Assembly: GCA_943325435.2 (NCBI GenBank)
Contig: CALPPK020000070.1
Coordinates: forward strand, 1-6,639
Source of the DNA: Bifidobacterium breve
Lineage (GTDB): Bacteria > Actinomycetota > Acidimicrobiia > Acidimicrobiales > Ilumatobacteraceae
Reading direction: 5' to 3'
DNA: 6,639 nucleotides
The notes beneath the pieces are model-generated. The model saw only the letters and a list, made by a program, of their open reading frames with translations. It had not been told where the DNA came from and ran no database searches. The first letter of the stretch is position 1. Each line of letters opens with the position of its first letter. The position numbers and the translations under genes are program-made. Shown here piece by piece: positions 17 to 6,639 of this stretch.

Positions 17-1369
17 ATGAATTCACCAATCCCTTTTTGTGATGCCAAAGCGTGTGCTGCAGCAGGTTGTACCGCAACTGTTTGTCGCGGCGTCGGGCTT
101 GCTTCTAACCAAGTTTTGTTTGATCGTTCCGCACAAGTGATTCCTGGTGGTGTCAACTCTTCCATTCGTGCGTTCAAGGCAGTTGGCGGAACACCATACG
201 TTGTGTCTCGTGCTGAAGGTGCGTTTGTGTACGACGTTGAAGGAAACGAACTCATTGACTTGGTGCAGAGTTACGGCGCCATCATTCTTGGACACGCACA
301 TCCAAAAGTAACTGAAGCAATTCGCAGTGCGGCCGGAGACGGGACTTCTTACGGAGCACCGACTCCTCGAGAAATGAAATTAGCAGAAGCAATTTCAGAA
401 CGTGTTCCTTCGTGTGAACGTGTTCGATTTATGAACAGTGGAACAGAAGCAACAAGTACTGCAGTGCGCTTGGCACGTGGTGCAACCGGACGTAAGCGCA
501 TTGTTACTTTTCATGGCAACTTTCACGGGGCTACTGATGCGTTGTTGGCCGCAGGTGGAAGCGGATTAGCAACACTTGGATTACCGGGCACAGCTGGTGT
601 GCCCGAAGAAGCAGTTGCAAATACATGGGTACTTCCATACAACGTTGTGCCAAAACTTGATAACGATGTTGCCGCAGTTTTTGTAGAACCAGTTGCTGCA
701 AACATGGGATTAGTTTCACCCGCTCCAGGATTTCTTGAAGGGCTTCGTGCAGAGTGTGACCGCGTTGGCGCGCTACTTGTGTTTGATGAAGTGATCACAG
801 GATTTCGTCTTGGTTCTGGTGGAGCTCAAGCAAAATACGATGTGAAGCCAGACCTCACATGTTTTGGAAAAGTAATTGGCGGCGGATTACCAATTGGTGC
901 AGTTGGTGGTCGACGCGACATTATGGAAAATCTCACACCGCTTGGTTCTGTTTTTCATGCAGGAACACTTGCAGGGAATCCGCTTGCAACTGCGGCAGGT
1001 CTTGCAGCGCTGAATGAGTTATCTGACGACGTATACATGGAATTGTCAGCACGTGCGCGTTTTACATCCGCCATGTTGCGTGATGCATGTAGTGATGCAG
1101 GAATACCCGCACAGTTTCCAGTTGTTGGAACTTTGATCGGAATGTATTTTGGAACTGAACTTGGAACAAAAACTCCGACGAATTTTGCAGAGGCTCAAAC
1201 AACTGATGAAGCGTTGTATGCCAAAGTATTTCATGCGTTGTTGCGCGGGGGCGTTGCATTGGCCCCCGGAGCATATGAGGCTGTATTTGTTGGTCTTTCT
1301 CACACCGATTCGGTTCTTGACCAACTTGCAGTTCGTGTATCTACGGCACTGAAAGGCCTCATGAATTGA
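17..1369 (+). CDS. hemL: Glutamate-1-semialdehyde 2,1-aminomutase
   Basis: This PLP enzyme converts glutamate-1-semialdehyde to 5-aminolevulinate, the last step of the C5 route to tetrapyrroles, in the cytoplasm. The 450-residue product is class III aminotransferase-like along its length. Visible motifs are the family opening IPGGVNS (residues 42-48), GHAHP (92-96), SGTEAT (141-146, cofactor phosphate region), VEPVAANMG (223-231), DEVITGFR (257-264, Asp257 contacting the PLP pyridine nitrogen), FGKVIGGGLPIGA (283-295) with Lys285 as the Schiff-base lysine, and GTLAGNP (316-322). These separate it from ordinary acetylornithine or GABA aminotransferases. The ATG at 17 has a good ribosome site (AAGGA at 4-8). 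This start adds about 28 residues before the normal family start, and they contain four evenly spaced cysteines (8, 13, 18, 23). It overlaps the next gene by 4 bp. Identity is secure; only the N-terminal extension is uncertain. Confidence 0.96.
   Translation: MNSPIPFCDAKACAAAGCTATVCRGVGLASNQVLFDRSAQVIPGGVNSSIRAFKAVGGTPYVVSRAEGAFVYDVEGNELIDLVQSYGAIILGHAHPKVTEAIRSAAGDGTSYGAPTPREMKLAEAISERVPSCERVRFMNSGTEATSTAVRLARGATGRKRIVTFHGNFHGATDALLAAGGSGLATLGLPGTAGVPEEAVANTWVLPYNVVPKLDNDVAAVFVEPVAANMGLVSPAPGFLEGLRAECDRVGALLVFDEVITGFRLGSGGAQAKYDVKPDLTCFGKVIGGGLPIGAVGGRRDIMENLTPLGSVFHAGTLAGNPLATAAGLAALNELSDDVYMELSARARFTSAMLRDACSDAGIPAQFPVVGTLIGMYFGTELGTKTPTNFAEAQTTDEALYAKVFHALLRGGVALAPGAYEAVFVGLSHTDSVLDQLAVRVSTALKGLMN
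1351..1356 (+). promoter_or_regulatory. Ribosome binding site for the TTG-start gene
   Basis: GAAAGG inside the last codons of hemL, nine bases before the TTG at 1366. It is the main reason for accepting a TTG start that overlaps the hemL stop. Confidence 0.5.
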
Positions 1370-1965
1370 GTCGGCGAATTCTTGCCGTTCTTCTTGCAGT
1401 GCTTGTCGCAGCGATTGTTCTTTTCGCTACACGTGAATCGTCTTCAGAAATTTCCGTGACTCAAACTCTTCGTAAAGTTGATTTAGTTGCGAGTGTTAAT
1501 TCAATCAATGTTGATTCCGGATGGTCACAAGAAAACGGTGTTACTCATGGTGGCGCTATGCGGATGTCTCTTGATGACTTGCGTGTATTGACAGTGCAGG
1601 AAGGAACCTTGGCTGCAGATTATGGTTCATCATCAGCATGCACAGATTTTGTGAAATCAAATGCATGCGTACTTTTGGCAGACATGTTGGGAGATGCTGT
1701 TGTCTGGTTTGCACTTGTGCCGTCAGATGTACTTGCTGGTCGTGAGTTTCTAACTTTGCCAGGCCTTGTAGACATGCAAGCAAACGGAGATGAAGGAATA
1801 CTTCGTAATGGTTGGGTTGTAAAACTGGCGACCCCAGTGAAAAGAGAATGTGGTGATTCTGTTACATCTTCACTGCGTGACTTCATCACGCGCTTTCCTG
1901 ATCAACTCAGTAAGTCAATTGTGAATCTCACCACAGACAACGTTGTGTCTGTGAAGTGCAAATAG
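1366..1965 (+). CDS. Unrecognised membrane-anchored extracytoplasmic protein
   Basis: I do not recognise the family. The 199-residue product begins MSRR followed by a single hydrophobic helix (about residues 4-21), which looks like an uncleaved signal anchor or signal peptide. The remaining ~175 residues are soluble-looking and would lie outside the membrane. That part has exactly four cysteines (92, 101, 162, 198), enough for two disulfides, and no heme or metal motif that I can see. The chosen start is TTG at 1366: it overlaps the hemL stop (TTGA, 4 bp) and has GAAAGG at 1351-1356 about nine bases upstream, which suggests translational coupling to hemL. The reading frame stays open for 199 codons with the same base usage as its neighbours, so it is very likely a real gene. 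A role in heme or cytochrome maturation is suggested only by position. The stop at 1963-1965 abuts the stop of the convergent cytochrome c gene. Confidence 0.75.
   Translation: MSRRILAVLLAVLVAAIVLFATRESSSEISVTQTLRKVDLVASVNSINVDSGWSQENGVTHGGAMRMSLDDLRVLTVQEGTLAADYGSSSACTDFVKSNACVLLADMLGDAVVWFALVPSDVLAGREFLTLPGLVDMQANGDEGILRNGWVVKLATPVKRECGDSVTSSLRDFITRFPDQLSKSIVNLTTDNVVSVKCK
1932..1953. terminator. Possible bidirectional hairpin terminator inside the 3' end of a CDS
   Basis: CACAGACA (1932-1939) and TGTCTGTG (1946-1953) form a perfect 8-bp stem with a 6-base loop. The hairpin lies within the last eleven codons of the + strand gene, just before two convergent genes whose stops touch. Since there is no intergenic space, a terminator would have to sit inside coding sequence. 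Neither side has a strong T-run (the + side has only an AT-rich stretch around the stop), so it is not a classical intrinsic terminator. Confidence 0.3.
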
Positions 1966-2778
1966 TTATTTACTGATTGCAGCGCGAGGTTCTGTGCCCA
2001 CGGCACCAGGTTTTGCAGCAAGCATGGCAAAGTCTTTTTCAATGGTGTCGAAGTTTGAACTTCCAGCTTCTAACGCCTTAAAGATTTCCGATTCTGGTGA
2101 ACACCAAGTTTCGTATTCTTCTTTCCACTCTTCGCTCGCAGGGTCTGCGCCAGAAGTTGTGTAGCGCACGTGGCAAACAACTGAGAGAATTTCTGCTTCG
2201 GTAAGAGCTCCGCCCGCTTTTTCACCTTGCATTGGCATTGGGTTTCCGTTGTATGACAATGGTGCATGTGCACCACCCTCACGCTCTGGATTGCCGTAGA
2301 GCTTGAGGTCAGCAGCGACAAACTTCTGACTTCCGGTGTAGACAAAGTTCAACATGTCTTCGATATGAGGGAATGTCTTTAGGACTTCACCTTGATACAG
2401 AACGCGACCTGCTCCACCAGGACCATCTGCACCATGGCAACCTGCACAGGAACCGAAGGTGGTTGCACCAATCGCCAATGGGCCAGCGACTACTTTTTCG
2501 GCTGGTTTCAGCGCGATGAGATACAACAATGCCCACGCGGGAAGAAGAGCCAAAGTCGTCATTGCCCAGAACGGAATCTTCTTGCGTGTCTTTGCAGCAA
2601 CAACATAGGCAGGGTCTTGTGCAACGGCTTTAGGGGCCGGAGCTTCTTTGGCCTTTGCTGGTGCAGCTGACGCGGCGGGTGTTGCGACTGCTGGTGTGCT
2701 GTCACTAGTGCTGTCGCCAGACGCTTCTGAACGTCGTGCTTTAGAGCGATTCAGTAGGTGCTCGGGAATCTCGGTCAC
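1966..2778 (-). CDS. Membrane-anchored monoheme cytochrome c
   Basis: The product is a class I-type cytochrome c of 270 residues held to the outer face of the cytoplasmic membrane. In order it has a 13-residue tag IPEHLLNRSKARR (4-16), an Ala/Pro/Lys-rich low-complexity linker (about 20-60), one transmembrane helix (about 68-90) and the heme domain. CAGCH at 111-115 is the CxxCH heme c site, with His115 as proximal ligand. Met181 or Met183 in NPMPM is the likely sixth ligand. Cys202 and Cys226 could form a disulfide. There is only one CxxCH. The start is GTG at 2776-2778, supported by GAGAGG at 2787-2792 on this strand with 8-base spacing, and by the match of the tag and ribosome site to the gene at 4815. 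It is transcribed away from the bc operon, from a shared control region, and is the obvious candidate for electron acceptor or c1-like partner of the Rieske protein. Confidence 0.9.
   Translation of the reverse strand: MTEIPEHLLNRSKARRSEASGDSTSDSTPAVATPAASAAPAKAKEAPAPKAVAQDPAYVVAAKTRKKIPFWAMTTLALLPAWALLYLIALKPAEKVVAGPLAIGATTFGSCAGCHGADGPGGAGRVLYQGEVLKTFPHIEDMLNFVYTGSQKFVAADLKLYGNPEREGGAHAPLSYNGNPMPMQGEKAGGALTEAEILSVVCHVRYTTSGADPASEEWKEEYETWCSPESEIFKALEAGSSNFDTIEKDFAMLAAKPGAVGTEPRAAISK
2731..2778 (-). repeat. N-terminal tag copy 1 (cytochrome c)
   Basis: Encodes the first 16 residues of the cytochrome c. Residues 4-16, IPEHLLNRSKARR, match the tags at 4824-4862 and 4917-4955 in the subunit IV-type gene, with nine of thirteen positions identical in all three copies. 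Residues 1-3 (MTE) and the upstream GAGAGG are also shared with the copy at 4815. Confidence 0.75.
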
Positions 2779-3108: not shown

Positions 3109-3585
3109 ATGCTCTCGATTGACATACTCAGATGGCCAGGAGTTAACCAGGCTTTTTTGTTTTCCTTTGGCATCACAACTGTGATGGCCCTTATCGTCAT
3201 CCCTTTCGGTAAACGACGCCCTGTCGGATCAGACACAACATGGGGTGAAGCCATGATTGGCTCCGTCTACACATTCTTTGTTCTGTTTCTTGCATTTGGT
3301 GTTGTACCTCACCAGTTCCTTGACCATGCAGACAAAGACCTCGGTTGGCGTAAAGACAAACTGCTGCTCGGACCTTTTGACATCTTGAAGCCAAAGGCTT
3401 TTGGCGGAAATTTCCCCATGACAATTAGCTATGAAGCAGTTCGTGACATCTTGACCGTTGTCATTCACGTCTACTTCATCGCACTCATGATCTTCCTGTT
3501 TGTCTGGTGGCAAAAGCGCGGCGAGCGCGGCGCGAAAGAAATCGAAGTGTCAACGTACGGCCGTCCTTTGGTGAAGAAAAGCTAA
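3109..3585 (+). CDS. Unrecognised three-helix membrane protein at head of bc operon
   Basis: I cannot assign this 158-residue protein to a named family. It has three predicted transmembrane helices, at about residues 14-33, 46-68 and 110-134. Positive residues after helix 1 (KRR at 35-37) and at the C-terminus (QKRGER region) suggest N-out, C-in topology, with an external loop of about 40 residues between helices 2 and 3 (69-109). His68 (end of helix 2) and His120 (within helix 3), plus His73 in the loop, are potential cofactor or quinone ligands, but nothing proves that. A GTG at 3049 would add 20 residues; the ATG at 3109 is preferred because of its ribosome site. The stop is only 6 bp before the ferredoxin-like gene, so the two are almost certainly co-transcribed. 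The best guess is a membrane anchor or quinone-side subunit for that ferredoxin-like protein, docking it to the bc complex. Confidence 0.8.
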   Translation: MLSIDILRWPGVNQAFLFSFGITTVMALIVIPFGKRRPVGSDTTWGEAMIGSVYTFFVLFLAFGVVPHQFLDHADKDLGWRKDKLLLGPFDILKPKAFGGNFPMTISYEAVRDILTVVIHVYFIALMIFLFVWWQKRGERGAKEIEVSTYGRPLVKKS

Positions 3586-3591
3586 AAACCC

Positions 3592-4005
3592 ATGGCACGT
3601 ACAGACGCAAACCCACCAATGCCCGAATGGTCAACTGAGTATCAACTCGTTGAGGTGGATGCTGATTACCTTGGCAAGGCAGTAAAGCCAAAGCAGTTCA
3701 TTCATATTGATCAAAGTGAATGCATCATGTGTGAAGGTTGCGTTGATATTTGTCCGTGGAAGTGCATCCACATGGTGACGCCAGATGCAATCTCGGAGGC
3801 GCAAGATACCGAAATGCCCGGTTCAGACCCGTCTGACAACGTTCTTTTCATCATCGACGATGATGTGTGCACTCGTTGCGCACTCTGTGTCGACCGTTGC
3901 CCAACAGGAGTAATCATCTTGGGCAAAGTTGGCGCACCAGATCCAGATGGTGACAGTCATATCCGAACTAACAATCATGGCTACGGCTATGGAATGCGAC
4001 TCTGA
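3592..4005 (+). CDS. 2x[4Fe-4S] ferredoxin-like subunit in bc operon
   Basis: The 137-residue soluble, cytoplasmic-looking protein has two classic 4Fe-4S motifs: CIMCEGCVDICP with Cys44, 47, 50 and 54, and CTRCALCVDRCP with Cys93, 96, 99 and 103. The spacing CxxCxxCxxxCP in both is typical of low-potential bacterial ferredoxin domains. The two motifs are about 39 residues apart, longer than in small clostridial-type ferredoxins, with an acidic insert (about 67-90). An extra Cys58 follows the first motif. The N-terminal 36 residues and the Gly/Tyr/His-rich C-terminus (126-137) have no recognised function. There is no signal peptide or membrane helix. It sits 6 bp after the three-helix protein and 11 bp before cytochrome b. 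Standard bc complexes lack such a subunit, so the context suggests an electron input or output module on the cytoplasmic side. The ferredoxin fold is secure; the partner is inferred. Confidence 0.93.
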   Translation: MARTDANPPMPEWSTEYQLVEVDADYLGKAVKPKQFIHIDQSECIMCEGCVDICPWKCIHMVTPDAISEAQDTEMPGSDPSDNVLFIIDDDVCTRCALCVDRCPTGVIILGKVGAPDPDGDSHIRTNNHGYGYGMRL

Positions 4006-4016
4006 GGTAAAGGCCC

Positions 4017-4799
4017 ATGGCAAAAGTTCTTGACAATCCACGTCCAACTCTCAAAGAGCGGGCAGCAAAATTAGGCAATCAAATGCAGGGAAGTCAGGCA
4101 TGGAATGCAATTTTCCGTCCTGGTTCAATCTTCCGTAAGGGCTACACAGACAGCCCGCGTAACCGCTCGTACGTCATCATGAACTCGGTGCTTTATCACT
4201 TGCACCCAGTCAAGGTAAAGCGTCACGCAGTCAAGGTCAGTTACACCTTGTGCCTTGGTGGTCTCAGCTTCTTCTTGTTCATTTTGCTAACAGTTACGGG
4301 CATTTTCTTGATGTTCTTCTACCGACCAACTGGTGCTGCAGCATGGCAAGACATTCAAACGTTGCAGACTTCTGTGACGTTTGGTCTTCTTGTTCGAAAC
4401 ATGCACCGATGGGGAGCACACCTCATGGTGCTTTCAACATTCCTTCACATGTCTCGCGTGTTTTACCACGGTGCATACAAAGCTCCGCGTGAATTCAACT
4501 GGGTTATTGGTGTTGTGTTGTTAACACTTACGTTGCTCCTTTCTTTCACTGGTTACTTGTTGCCATGGGACCAGTTAGCTCTATGGGCTGTAACCGTGGG
4601 TACCAACATGATGGGCTACACACCTGTATTTGGATCGCAAGTGCGATTCGTGTTGCTAGGTGGAGTTGAAATTGGTTCTGAAACTTTGCTTCGTTGGTAC
4701 GTGTTGCACGTACTTCTACTTCCATTCGTCATCGTTATCTTTATGGCCATCCACTTCTGGCGTGTTCGTAAAGACGGCGGAATTTCCGGACCTTTGTGA
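4017..4799 (+). CDS. Cytochrome b6-type subunit of the bc complex
   Basis: This is the N-terminal, four-helix half of cytochrome b (260 residues), binding two b hemes across the membrane. Helices lie at about residues 76-103, 126-148, 163-183 and 228-248. The heme histidines are His130 and His144 (13 residues between) in helix B, and His231 and His246 (14 residues between) in helix D. The 14-residue interval is the b6f / Gram-positive pattern, not the mitochondrial 13. GYLLPWDQLALWA (179-191) is the conserved Qo-side segment, and the end RKDGGISGPL is typical of b6-type chains that stop here. Cys79 in LCLGG aligns with the cysteine that binds heme c-i covalently in b6f and Bacillus b6c complexes. 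A polar N-terminal extension of about 60 residues precedes the core. The ATG follows AGG at 4011-4013. Its partner half is the next gene, 15 bp on. Confidence 0.95.
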   Translation: MAKVLDNPRPTLKERAAKLGNQMQGSQAWNAIFRPGSIFRKGYTDSPRNRSYVIMNSVLYHLHPVKVKRHAVKVSYTLCLGGLSFFLFILLTVTGIFLMFFYRPTGAAAWQDIQTLQTSVTFGLLVRNMHRWGAHLMVLSTFLHMSRVFYHGAYKAPREFNWVIGVVLLTLTLLLSFTGYLLPWDQLALWAVTVGTNMMGYTPVFGSQVRFVLLGGVEIGSETLLRWYVLHVLLLPFVIVIFMAIHFWRVRKDGGISGPL

Positions 4800-4814: not shown

Positions 4815-4862
4815 ATGACTGAAATCCCTGAGCATCTTTTAAAGCGCGCAAAAGCTGCACGC
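4815..4862 (+). repeat. N-terminal tag copy 2 (subunit IV-type protein)
   Basis: Encodes MTE plus IPEHLLKRAKAAR, residues 1-16. The DNA also resembles the cytochrome c gene just upstream (CGAGAGG before both starts), which fits duplication of a gene start rather than chance similarity of peptides. Confidence 0.75.
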
Positions 4863-5543
4863 GATAAGGCAGCTGACGATGCCGCTGCACCGGCTGCAGA
4901 CGCAGGCGACTCTCGTATCCCTGACCACCTACTCGAGCGCAGCAAAGCGGCGCGTGGAGACGGCGGCGCAGTAGCAGTCGCAGATAAAGCTTCAGCAGTT
5001 GTTGCTGCAACCCCTTCAGCTGGATTGCCAGTTGGAGCTGGTCCTGGCGGACACACACAACGTTTGTTGACTGTTGTTAAGTCTGGTTCTATTCAAGAAA
5101 CTAAAGCAGCACCAGTTGACAAAGTTCATACGTGGCCTCACTTGTTGGCAGTCGAATTTGTTGCAGGTCTTGCCTGTACAGCTTTCTTGTTTGTCTTCTC
5201 GTGGGTTGTTAACGCACCACTTATGCATGCAGCAGACTTCAACAAAACCCCGAACCCTTCAAAGGCGCCGTGGTACTTCCTCGGTTTGCAGGAACTTCTC
5301 ACTATGTTCCACCCGATGATTGCCGGTGTAACGCTTCCAGGAATGGGCCTTGTTGTTCTTATCTTGGCGCCATTCGTTGACAAAAATCCTTCGAACAGGC
5401 CAGAAGATCGCAAGTGGATGACATCAATGTTCACCTTGTTCCTTATGTTCTGGGCAGTTCTCGTAATTATCGGTTCTTTCTTCCGCGGTCCCGGATTCAA
5501 CTTCACCTTCCCATGGCGTGACGGAATCTTCTTCGAATTGTGA
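4815..5543 (+). CDS. Cytochrome b C-terminal (subunit IV-type) protein with tagged extension
   Basis: This is the second half of a split cytochrome b (242 residues), completing the quinol oxidation (Qo) site. The membrane part has three helices at about 108-134, 170-187 and 203-224. TPNPSKAPWYFLGLQELL (145-162) is the Qo-site segment, in which the usual PEWY reads A151-P152-W153-Y154, so the conserved glutamate is missing. The end RGPGFNFTFPW (224-234) is typical of these chains. An unusual hydrophilic N-terminal region of ~105 residues, rich in Ala, Asp and Val, carries two copies of a tag: IPEHLLKRAKAAR (4-16) and IPDHLLERSKAAR (35-47). The same tag starts the divergent cytochrome c. ATG 4815 has AGAGGA at 4803-4808, 6 bases upstream. 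In plain b6f subunit IV (about 160 residues) there is no such extension. Confidence 0.93.
   Translation: MTEIPEHLLKRAKAARDKAADDAAAPAADAGDSRIPDHLLERSKAARGDGGAVAVADKASAVVAATPSAGLPVGAGPGGHTQRLLTVVKSGSIQETKAAPVDKVHTWPHLLAVEFVAGLACTAFLFVFSWVVNAPLMHAADFNKTPNPSKAPWYFLGLQELLTMFHPMIAGVTLPGMGLVVLILAPFVDKNPSNRPEDRKWMTSMFTLFLMFWAVLVIIGSFFRGPGFNFTFPWRDGIFFEL
4917..4955 (+). repeat. Tag copy 3, internal (subunit IV-type protein)
   Basis: Encodes IPDHLLERSKAAR, residues 35-47, exactly 31 residues after the same position in copy 2. The linker between the copies is Ala/Asp-rich. This is a tandem in-protein duplication of the tag. Confidence 0.75.
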
Positions 5544-5611
5544 TGAAGACAATGAATACCCCCAACAACATTCGACGTAACAACACAGAAGCAAGGAACG
5601 AACAGTCATGA
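5543..5611 (+). other. Possible 22-codon mini-ORF filling the gap before the Rieske gene
   Basis: The ATG at 5543-5545 overlaps the stop of the upstream gene (TGATG) and the frame runs 22 codons to a TGA at 5609-5611, which overlaps the Rieske start (ATGA). The encoded peptide is polar and Asn/Arg-rich, starting MKTMNTPNN. It could be a coupling leader peptide, or chance. No independent ribosome site was seen, and the frame is short enough to be open by luck. Confidence 0.25.
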
Positions 5612-6453
5612 GCACCGGAATTGTCATCGCAATCGTTGTTATTGCAGCGATCATCTTTGGTCTGATTGTTGTTCTTACAACTTCGCGCACTTCAGAAGTT
5701 CGCGGCGCAGGCGCATTGTCACGCGAGACTCGTTCTCGCAACACGAAGGCGAACATCTCAGATGCCGCACCAACTGGCCGTGAAGTTGAAGCACAAGCTT
5801 CTGTTCGTTCGACATCTCTTGTCAAGGCCGCACCTGTTGAAGTGGCCCCGTGGGTTGCTCCAGATGAAGAAGCACTCGGCGTCTCGCGTCGTATGTTCTT
5901 CAACCGCGCAACCGTTACCTTGCTGTCAGTCAGCGTTGGTGCCTTCGGTGCTTCGGTAGTTGGTTTTCTTTGGAAAGGCGCTGAAGGCGGCTTTGGTTCC
6001 AAAATCAATGCCGGAAAAATTGATGACGTTATTCAGTTGATTCGCCAGAACAAAGGTTTCTTGTACTTGTCAGAAGCTCGTGCTTGGGTGACCGAGTATC
6101 CAAAAGATGCTCTCGGAAAAGGTCAAGCTGTTTATGGAGGTCAGGCTCCGGTGTTTTCTGGAATGCAGGCAGGCATTGTTGCGCTGTACCAGAAGTGCCC
6201 TCACCTCGGATGTCGTGTTCCTGAGTGCAAGAGTTCGCAATGGTTTGAATGCCCGTGCCATGGTTCGCAGTACAACCGCGTCGGTGAAAAAAAGGGTGGG
6301 CCAGCTCCACGCGGAATGGATCGTTTCGGAGTGGGCATTACGAACGGTGTTCTCACAATTGACACTGGCGCAGTATTCGCAGGGCCGTCAATTGGTATCA
6401 ACACCACTGGACAAGAAGCTGAAGGACCTCACTGTGTCGGCGGAGGGCACTAA
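5608..6453 (+). CDS. qcrA: Rieske [2Fe-2S] iron-sulfur protein of the bc complex
   Basis: This subunit takes one electron from quinol at the Qo site and hands it to a c-type cytochrome, outside the membrane. In the 281-residue product the cluster motifs are CPHLGC (197-202) and CPCHGSQY (215-222). Cys197, His199, Cys215 and His218 are the ligands, and Cys202 and Cys217 form the family disulfide. Ser220 and Tyr222, which hydrogen-bond the cluster and raise its potential, are both kept. There are two membrane helices: residues 5-24, and 101-122 preceded by the twin-arginine motif SRRMFF (93-98). The basic loop between them should be cytoplasmic. This matches the mixed Sec/Tat insertion known for actinobacterial Rieske proteins, which usually have three helices rather than two. 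An extra Cys207 lies between the cluster motifs. AAGGA at 5593-5597 supports ATG 5608. The next gene starts 2 bp after the stop. Confidence 0.96.
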   Translation: MSTGIVIAIVVIAAIIFGLIVVLTTSRTSEVRGAGALSRETRSRNTKANISDAAPTGREVEAQASVRSTSLVKAAPVEVAPWVAPDEEALGVSRRMFFNRATVTLLSVSVGAFGASVVGFLWKGAEGGFGSKINAGKIDDVIQLIRQNKGFLYLSEARAWVTEYPKDALGKGQAVYGGQAPVFSGMQAGIVALYQKCPHLGCRVPECKSSQWFECPCHGSQYNRVGEKKGGPAPRGMDRFGVGITNGVLTIDTGAVFAGPSIGINTTGQEAEGPHCVGGGH

Positions 6454-6455
6454 TC

Positions 6456-6639
6456 ATGTTTGCATCAACTAGTACCTCTATTGCCTGGGTGATTCTTCTC
6501 ATCTCGCTTGCGGGATGGGCGTTTTACGCGTTCTCCAACATTCGGTCATCACGTTCCGAAATCGGTTCCGAGCAAAAACTTGCTGCTAACCGTAAGCCCT
6601 ACTACGACGATGAAATTCTTGAAGGTCCGCGTCTTGAGC
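6456..6639 (+). CDS. Start of a membrane protein, possibly a membrane-bound cytochrome c (runs off window)
   Basis: Only the first 61 codons are present. The ATG at 6456 has a strong ribosome site (GGAGGG, 6442-6447) with 8-base spacing and begins 2 bp after the Rieske stop, so this is the next operon gene. Residues about 8-27 form a membrane helix, followed by a basic segment (NIRSSRSE) and a polar stretch, NRKPYYDDEILEGPRLE, to the window edge. The extracytoplasmic-in N-terminus followed by a basic stretch suggests a helix with its C-side in the cytoplasm, so at least one more helix should follow. From family memory, similar starts occur on two-helix cytochrome c proteins next to actinobacterial bc genes. 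No CxxCH lies in the visible part, so the product is an inference. Confidence 0.6.
   Translation, partial: MFASTSTSIAWVILLISLAGWAFYAFSNIRSSRSEIGSEQKLAANRKPYYDDEILEGPRLE

What the first reader, a model, noticed from the sequence alone, without database searches (positions are those of the whole stretch)
3109..4799. A three-helix protein and a 2x[4Fe-4S] ferredoxin built into a cytochrome bc operon
The sequence shows an unknown membrane protein, then a double 4Fe-4S ferredoxin-like protein, then cytochrome b, with gaps of 6 and 11 bp. Standard bc1, b6f and actinobacterial bcc complexes have no ferredoxin-type subunit. The hypothesis is that the pair is a cytoplasmic-side module exchanging low-potential electrons with the Qi side of cytochrome b (ferredoxin:menaquinone reduction, similar in spirit to the proposed ferredoxin input into b6f), or that it senses or regulates the complex. 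His68 and His120 of the three-helix protein could bind a cofactor.
Basis: partly seen in the sequence, partly recalled or inferred. Interest (0 to 1): 0.72.

Follow-up and report, generated by a model that had tools for sequence, protein, structure and literature searches.

The report
Ferredoxin-carrying cytochrome bc complex
In many sampled actinobacteria, genes of the respiratory cytochrome bc complex sit next to genes for an unknown small membrane protein and usually a two-cluster ferredoxin, which suggests that this energy machine has an extra port for electrons on its inner, cytoplasmic side.

Summary
TH (3109-3585), Fd (3592-4005) and split cytochrome b (4017-4799) sit with 6- and 11-bp gaps in a b6f-type bc operon of an Acidimicrobiia bacterium. 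The 80 closest loci all keep the trio. In 396 sampled Actinomycetota genomes, 110 of 111 Fd homologues lie directly upstream of this cytochrome b; one contig ends too soon. A TH-like protein precedes 162 of 165 such loci (3 cut by contig ends). Fd is missing in seven loci, with at least four changes on the tree. A paralogous complex has the order small TH-like protein, flavoprotein fused to Fd, cytochrome b, which ties this Fd to electron exchange. Closest published kin: anammox Rieske/cytochrome b complexes with a NAD(P) oxidoreductase. Heme c_n Cys, a candidate Glu ligand and a basic cytochrome b tail are conserved; Fd is acidic. Best reading: Fd is an accessory n-side subunit passing low-potential electrons to heme c_n/menaquinone. 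Binding, direction and donor are unproven.

The parts
3109..3585 (+). TH: small membrane protein, three predicted helices, uncharacterised family; proposed constant subunit
   Evidence: TH-like ORF directly upstream of Fd or cytochrome b in 162 of 165 loci, 3 cut by contig ends; groups linked by profile-profile comparison; AF2 pLDDT 82.7; no known family
3592..4005 (+). Fd: 2x[4Fe-4S] ferredoxin-type protein, net charge -13; proposed accessory n-side subunit
   Evidence: Pfam Fer4 families; 110 of 111 homologues precede this cytochrome b
3721..3765 (+). First cluster motif CIMCEGCVDICP plus ninth Cys (Cys58 in CPWKC)
   Evidence: These Cys invariant in 33 aligned Fd
3868..3900 (+). Second cluster motif CTRCALCVDRC
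   Evidence: These Cys invariant in 33 aligned Fd
4017..4799 (+). Split, b6-type cytochrome b; His130/144 and His231/246 have the spacing of b6 heme ligands (spacing rule recalled)
   Evidence: PF00033; NF040969 306.1 bits, cut-off 290; positions
4017..4241 (+). Basic N-terminal extension of cytochrome b (residues 1-75, +11), candidate Fd docking site, with His61, His63, His70
   Evidence: Seen in Fd-linked rows, not in the four canonical rows L172, L174, L176, L178; charge
4251..4253 (+). Cys79, predicted covalent ligand of heme c_n (c_i)
   Evidence: Cys in 116 of 116 resolved (118 named) Fd-linked and 7 of 7 Fd-less main-clade loci; not Cys in 8 of 8 flavoprotein-Fd paralogues
4815..5543 (+). 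Subunit IV, with PWYF motif
   Evidence: PF00032
5154..5156 (+). Glu114 of subunit IV, candidate axial ligand of heme c_n
   Evidence: Glu in 113 of 113 resolved of 133 Fd-linked loci; His in 4 of 4 resolved of 8 paralogues; role by analogy with PMC12954380 and recall
5608..6453 (+). Rieske [2Fe-2S] protein, CPHLGC / CPCHGSQY (Ser and Tyr)
   Evidence: PF00355; SxY in 106 and SxF in 2 of 108 resolved of 133
6456..6638 (+). Small ORF after the Rieske gene, runs off the window
   Evidence: Matched in 67 of the 80 closest loci
1966..2778 (-). Cytochrome c with one CxxCH, divergent; proposed c subunit of the complex
   Evidence: PF00034 20.5 bits, cut-off 21.3; shares the IPEHLL tail motif with subunit IV
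2752..2769 (-). IPEHLL tail motif of cytochrome c
4824..4841 (+). First IPEHLL tail motif of subunit IV
4917..4934 (+). Second tail motif (IPDHLL) of subunit IV

Best explanation
This is a b6f-type menaquinol:cytochrome c complex with two extra subunits. TH is a constant small membrane subunit of unknown role. Fd is an accessory cytoplasmic (n-side) subunit whose two [4Fe-4S] clusters sit over cytochrome b and hand low-potential electrons from a cytosolic donor (a soluble ferredoxin or a reductase) to heme c_n and the n-side menaquinone site, so that the complex doubles as a ferredoxin:menaquinone reductase. Shown: gene order, conservation, lineages without Fd, the same order with a flavoprotein-Fd fusion in a paralogue, the heme c_n residues, opposite charges. 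Inferred: physical binding, electron transfer, its direction and the donor.
For: Trio kept in 80 of 80 closest loci. Of 111 Fd homologues in 396 sampled genomes 107 have cytochrome b next downstream, three more show its start at a contig edge, one contig ends. TH-like ORF next upstream in 162 of 165. Paralogue: flavoprotein with a C-terminal Fd domain directly before cytochrome b in the 6 loci where it could be read in full (Pfam on 3 of them), with a small TH-like ORF at its start. Heme c_n Cys 116 of 116 and Glu 113 of 113 resolved. Fd -13, cytochrome b residues 1-75 +11. His61-like residue in 116 of 122 Fd-linked, 6 of 7 Fd-less and 8 of 8 paralogue loci, 0 of 10 others by the pattern (L170 has a similar stretch by eye). 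Fd is nearly as conserved as cytochrome b (medians 85% and 90%; loci picked by Fd). A POR gamma domain, mark of enzymes that make reduced ferredoxin, in 93 of 109 Fd-bearing genomes (hand count). Heme c_n is proposed as the entry for ferredoxin electrons in plant-type b6f (PMC9342900, passages).
Against: Fd is missing in seven loci with the rest kept, at least four changes on the tree, so it is not needed for the core reaction, and those members keep the heme c_n Cys (7 of 7). The POR domain is also present in 7 of 7 Fd-less genomes and missing from 16 of 109 Fd-bearing ones, so it does not explain the pattern. No contact was modelled; the Fd model was poor (pLDDT 44.1). The paralogue that carries the flavoprotein lacks the heme c_n Cys, so its electron path must differ.
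Confidence: 0.45

Rival explanations
1. Reverse direction: menaquinol is bifurcated at the p-side site; the high-potential electron goes through Rieske towards oxygen, the low-potential one through the b hemes to Fd, so the complex makes reduced ferredoxin, in the manner proposed for NAD(P)H in anammox complexes.
For: Rieske has the Ser/Tyr pair (SxY 106 and SxF 2 of 108 resolved of 133). Kuste4569, which has both residues, was measured at +303 mV, and its authors argue that such a potential would allow a very low-potential b_p heme (PMC12954380, sections read). Where resolved, canonical split complexes of the phylum have GxF (4 of 10 loci resolved).
Against: Heme c_n Cys and candidate Glu are intact, so the n-side quinone site would drain the electrons; ferredoxin lies lower than NAD(P)H; a high-potential Rieske may be expected simply for aerobic chains; the Fd-less loci have SxY as well (5 of 5 resolved); no potentials are known here.
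Confidence: 0.15
2. Fd is a structural or regulatory subunit: its clusters stabilise the n-side or sense redox state or oxygen and gate the n-side site, without electron flow in turnover.
For: Absence in several lineages with everything else kept; PetP, a regulatory n-side subunit of cyanobacterial b6f, binds at the proposed ferredoxin-FNR site (PMC9342900, passages).
Against: All eight cluster Cys and a ninth are invariant in 33 aligned Fd with identities to the window down to 25%; the flavoprotein fusion of the paralogue points to electron transfer.
Confidence: 0.22
3. TH and Fd are assembly factors, for instance for heme c_n attachment or cluster insertion, and not subunits of the mature complex.
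For: Cytochrome c biogenesis-like membrane genes lie upstream in several lineages (named by eye).
Against: Fd-less loci keep the heme c_n Cys (7 of 7); the Fd domain is part of a large flavoprotein in the paralogue; conservation of Fd is close to that of cytochrome b.
Confidence: 0.1
4. Fd is an ordinary soluble ferredoxin that is merely co-transcribed with the bc genes.
For: Motifs are those of ordinary 2[4Fe-4S] proteins.
Against: Linkage in 110 of 111, own signature CPWxCI, fusion in the paralogue.
Confidence: 0.06

Closest known systems
Anammox Rieske/cytochrome b complexes Kuste4569-4574 and Kustd1480-1485 (PMC12954380)
   Same: b6-like split cytochrome b, subunit IV-like protein, Rieske, and an Fe-S bearing protein likely on the n-side; there a NAD(P) oxidoreductase with a chain of clusters leading to cytochrome b in the authors' AlphaFold3 models
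   Different: The window operon has a stand-alone 2x[4Fe-4S] Fd and no flavoprotein, a cytochrome c with one CxxCH instead of hexa/octaheme cytochrome c, plus TH. The flavoprotein-Fd paralogue of the phylum is nearer to the anammox design but lacks the heme c_n Cys. Anammox sequences were not compared here.
Cytochrome b6f with ferredoxin/FNR in cyclic electron flow (PMC9342900, passages; PMC10931702, abstract in listing)
   Same: Split cytochrome b, heme c_n residue, proposed entry of ferredoxin electrons from the n-side
   Different: There the ferredoxin is soluble and 2Fe-2S (recalled) and the enzyme is called unidentified; here a two-cluster ferredoxin gene is built into the operon
ExtP/ExtQ cytochrome b pair (NCBIfam NF040969, NF040970)
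   Same: Window cytochrome b passes the ExtP cut-off (306.1 against 290 bits)
   Different: Subunit IV is under the ExtQ cut-off (54.1 against 150); no other ext family among the listed hits of the seven proteins scanned
Actinobacterial bcc complex (QcrB, NF050120)
   Same: Rieske/cytochrome b complex of the same phylum
   Different: Cytochrome b 117.8 bits against a cut-off of 500; split cytochrome b, extra Fd and TH
NuoI
   Same: Two-cluster ferredoxin motifs
   Different: 37.9 bits against the NuoI cut-off of 113.05

Membership tests
b6f-type Rieske/cytochrome b complex | Cytochrome b split into a b6-like part and subunit IV | tested here: met
   PF00033 on 4017-4799 and PF00032 on 4815-5543
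b6f-type Rieske/cytochrome b complex | Cys for covalent heme c_n | tested here: met
   Cys79; Cys in 116 of 116 resolved Fd-linked loci. Heme attachment itself not testable
b6f-type Rieske/cytochrome b complex | Rieske protein with both cluster motifs | tested here: met
   PF00355, CPHLGC and CPCHGSQY
b6f-type Rieske/cytochrome b complex | Cytochrome f | tested here: not met
   No cytochrome f family on the nine window proteins scanned; a cytochrome c lies divergently instead
2[4Fe-4S] ferredoxin | Two CxxCxxCxxxCP motifs | tested here: met
2[4Fe-4S] ferredoxin | Two low-potential clusters present | not testable with these tools
   Needs EPR
Anammox-type complex with NAD(P) oxidoreductase | Flavoprotein gene in the operon | tested here: not met
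   No such domain among the nine window proteins scanned; a gene beyond 6639 is not excluded. In the paralogue: met
Anammox-type complex with NAD(P) oxidoreductase | n-side Fe-S clusters next to cytochrome b | tested here: inconclusive
   Gene linkage and charge only
Anammox-type complex with NAD(P) oxidoreductase | Multiheme cytochrome c | tested here: not met
   One CxxCH in the window's cytochrome c
NuoI | Passes the NCBIfam cut-off TIGR01971 | tested here: not met
   37.9 against 113.05 bits
Actinobacterial bcc (QcrB) | Passes NF050120 | tested here: not met
   117.8 against 500 bits

The most novel reading that the evidence does not exclude
In a broad set of actinobacteria the bc complex is a two-way hub between the quinone pool and the cytosolic low-potential pool: through Fd it can take ferredoxin electrons into menaquinone at heme c_n or, driven by oxygen through a high-potential Rieske, push bifurcated quinol electrons out as reduced ferredoxin. 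That would be quinone-based bifurcation making ferredoxin-level reductant in aerobes.
Probability: 0.13. Interest if true: 0.9.

Novelty: new variant of a known kind. Interest (0 to 1): 0.66.

Why it matters
Which enzyme passes ferredoxin electrons to quinone in ferredoxin-dependent cyclic photosynthetic flow is still called unidentified (PMC10931702, abstract), and heme c_n is a proposed gate (PMC9342900, passages). Here is a b6f-type complex with a ferredoxin gene in its operon, spread over divergent lineages of a phylum, with natural variants that are ready controls: Fd present, Fd missing, and Fd fused to a flavoprotein with the heme c_n Cys lost. It also offers a possible exit for reduced ferredoxin in aerobes, and an uncharacterised membrane subunit family, TH.

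Tried and rejected

Other phyla: untested. Of the 120 rows listed in the third protein search only three name an organism: two Actinomycetota and one MAG named Acidobacteria, whose contig length (102841) equals that of L148's contig in a genome drawn as the window's phylum. The plasmid search gave 97 records, all under 60% identity, none covering 80% of the query; their neighbours were not looked at.

That was the wrong place. Searches found a small two-helix TH-like ORF at the start of the flavoprotein gene.

Weak points of the TH survey: the alignment held a wrong row (L125, a cytochrome biogenesis protein) and a bad row (L126); still holds L126. The search uses a loose pattern with W, P, D/E and Q/G/N/E, so conservation at those places is partly imposed there, and the profiles were built from its picks; one search did not use the pattern. 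Controls for the pattern: 8 of 317 random anchors, 1 of 50 upstream of HemL, 0 of 91 upstream of CytC, but 121 of 153 upstream of SubIV and 54 of 119 upstream of Rieske, where other membrane proteins of the operon lie.

Papers: ten searches of the held open library; two of them found no paper and a third none either (50); no title or abstract in the other listings spoke of a ferredoxin subunit in an actinobacterial bc complex. Subscription papers such as ten Brink et al. 2013 on multiple Rieske/cytb complexes (seen only in a reference list) were not read, so a claim of absence from print is weak. Seen: PMC12954380 abstract, introduction, section 3.3 and discussion; passages of PMC3578206, PMC13053071, PMC4683180 and PMC9342900; PMC10931702 only as the start of its abstract in a listing.

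Full report
Observation. The window (6639 bases) is from an Acidimicrobiia bacterium close to MAGs named Ilumatobacteraceae or Acidimicrobiaceae (L001-L004 match its Fd at 99-100%). Gene order: hemL 17-1369 (+), an unknown ORF 1366-1965 (+), cytochrome c 1966-2778 (-), TH 3109-3585, Fd 3592-4005, cytochrome b 4017-4799, subunit IV 4815-5543, Rieske 5608-6453, a small ORF from 6456 (hemL by recall from its Pfam family). The 6- and 11-bp gaps are right. Fd carries two CxxCxxCxxxCP motifs and a ninth Cys in the signature CPWxCI; these nine Cys are invariant in 33 aligned homologues. TH has no known family.

Near relatives. Matches to subunit IV were found in 73, Rieske in 71, the small ORF in 67, cytochrome c in 72, hemL in 45; some contigs end early. 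Median identity to the window: cytochrome b 90, Fd 85, hemL 78, subunit IV 76, Rieske 66, TH 65, cytochrome c 64. The loci were picked by Fd similarity, so they are close kin and favour Fd.

Whole phylum. In 396 genomes drawn evenly from the phylum, 109 have an Fd homologue at E <= 1e-20, 111 in all. 107 of 111 have cytochrome b next downstream on the same strand. Of the other four, three show the start of cytochrome b at a contig edge and one contig ends 165 bases after the Fd match. Fd identity goes down to about 32%. Among the loci held (near and far, overlapping in part) 165 have this cytochrome b at 330 bits or more; a TH-like ORF lies directly upstream of Fd, or of cytochrome b if Fd is missing, in 162, and the three others have under 300 bases before Fd. 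TH profiles of six lineage groups match one another at 94.95-99.51% probability, against 0.05-2.58% for a cytochrome b membrane segment as control (picks made with the pattern). In an alignment chosen without that pattern Trp45 (50 of 50), Pro67 (48), Asp113 (46) and Gln135 (44) stand out (two bad rows among the 50). His68 and His120 do not.

Fd is optional. I compared 137 of the cytochrome b rows listed with the Fd rows; 30 had no Fd hit before them. Of these 30, four have a more distant or partly masked Fd (L158, L159, L162, L165); seven have TH and no Fd (L155, L156, L157, L160, L161, L163, L164); four start at contig ends or were not fetched (G028:C130); twelve belong by score to the paralogue below, eight of them fetched; three are other types (L170, L172, L176). 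On a 72-row cytochrome b tree the seven Fd-less rows need four changes, all forced by well supported branches, inside a clade otherwise made of Fd carriers. Since the next clade also has an Fd domain (that join has support 91/48 only, with the long row L170 just outside), I read these as losses; the tree itself does not tell gain from loss.

The paralogue. In some genomes a second split cytochrome b (about 50% identical) has directly before it a gene of 605-694 aa: a flavoprotein with Fer4_20 and Pyr_redox_2 (GltD-like by recall) and a C-terminal 2x[4Fe-4S] domain (six loci read in full; Pfam on three). Five of the six share the CPxxCI signature. At the start of the flavoprotein gene lies a small two-helix ORF with the TH pattern W..A..VP..RD..Q: in six loci, and in L183 before its Fd-cytochrome b pair; L181 has only 347 bases before cytochrome b and cannot be judged. 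A single TH profile gives E 2.3e-7, 1.7e-5, 8.9e-5, 1.4e-4, 0.0026, 0.011 and 0.28 for the seven; the best of 29 other short membrane-like ORFs of these loci gives 0.11. Profile against profile: 96.0% with all TH together, 56-92% with the six groups, 0.08% with the control. So the order TH, Fd, cytochrome b is likely common to both clades. The paralogue keeps the His61-like residue (8 of 8) but not the heme c_n Cys (0 of 8), and subunit IV has His in place of Glu where resolved (4 of 8). Other split cytochrome b of the phylum (L172-L180) have no Fd and keep the Cys (8 of 8); the four shown lack the extension.

How it may work. The Fd-TH loci keep the heme c_n Cys (116 of 116 resolved of 118) and the candidate Glu (113 of 113 resolved of 133; 14 unresolved are short of sequence and six were missed by the pattern). 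Fd is acidic (-13; -2 to -14 in 33 rows) and the cytochrome b extension basic (+11). So n-side docking with electrons passing to heme c_n and menaquinone is the most direct reading. The published anammox case has a similar layout with a NAD(P) oxidoreductase and four clusters; AlphaFold3 placed an extra b heme at the dimer interface, held by a His of cytochrome b (His43/His62) (PMC12954380). Whether that His equals His61 here was not tested. Heme c_n is the suggested gate for ferredoxin electrons in cyclic flow, and a regulatory subunit binds within 16 A of it (PMC9342900). Direction is open: the Rieske has Ser and Tyr (SxY 106, SxF 2 of 108 resolved of 133), a pair linked to high potential, whereas canonical loci have GxF (4 resolved of 10). 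But the Fd-less loci have SxY too (5 of 5 resolved of 7) and the paralogue SxF 4 and SxY 3 of 7 resolved, so the pair does not follow Fd. A high Rieske potential would make the bifurcating reading possible; I rank it lower because the n-side quinone site looks intact. The POR gamma domain is present in 93 of 109 Fd-bearing and 7 of 7 Fd-less genomes (counted by hand), so it neither supports nor excludes the input reading.

Known or new. The complex is a b6f-type Rieske/cytochrome b complex without cytochrome f in the window. An Fe-S module on the n-side is known from anammox bacteria; a stand-alone ferredoxin gene plus TH, conserved over divergent lineages of Actinomycetota, did not come up in ten searches of the open library, but key subscription papers could not be read. 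I call it a new variant of a known kind. The tail motif shared by the cytochrome c and subunit IV suggests that the divergent cytochrome c belongs to the complex too.

Noticed in passing
2752-2769 (-), 4824-4841 and 4917-4934 (+): A short tail motif, IPEHLLxR[SA], begins the cytochrome c and, once or twice, subunit IV. In three whole genomes the pattern gave 5 hits, all at the places of these two genes (reversed control 0). In the 80 near loci 68 of 69 cytochrome c and 62 of 69 subunit IV that could be judged carry it, 23 with two or more; 11 further hits look like starts of the same two genes that the sorting missed. Perhaps a shared docking tail.
   Followed up: partly
L166, L167, L168, L169, L171, L182: A second bc complex in the phylum has a flavoprotein with a C-terminal ferredoxin domain directly before cytochrome b, a small TH-like ORF before that, and no heme c_n Cys.
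   Followed up: partly
L186 about 16988-17123, L187 about 17505-17640: A second pair of 4Fe-4S motifs, NuoI-like by eye, lies about 13-14 kb downstream of the bc operon in two genomes, so complex I genes may be near.
   Followed up: no
L112-L125, upstream of TH: Cytochrome c biogenesis-like membrane genes, and in other lineages thioredoxin-like genes, stand upstream of TH (named by eye).
   Followed up: no
L004, L006, L053, L066, L068: Records titled Bifidobacterium breve carry this locus at 82-99% Fd identity; the titles look wrong.
   Followed up: no
1366-1965: Unknown 199-aa ORF overlapping the end of hemL by 4 bases, no Pfam match, matched beside hemL in many relatives.
   Followed up: no
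L170: A cytochrome b joined in frame to subunit IV, with part of the extension, Gly in place of the heme c_n Cys, no Fd motif, on a very long branch next to both Fd-linked clades.
   Followed up: no
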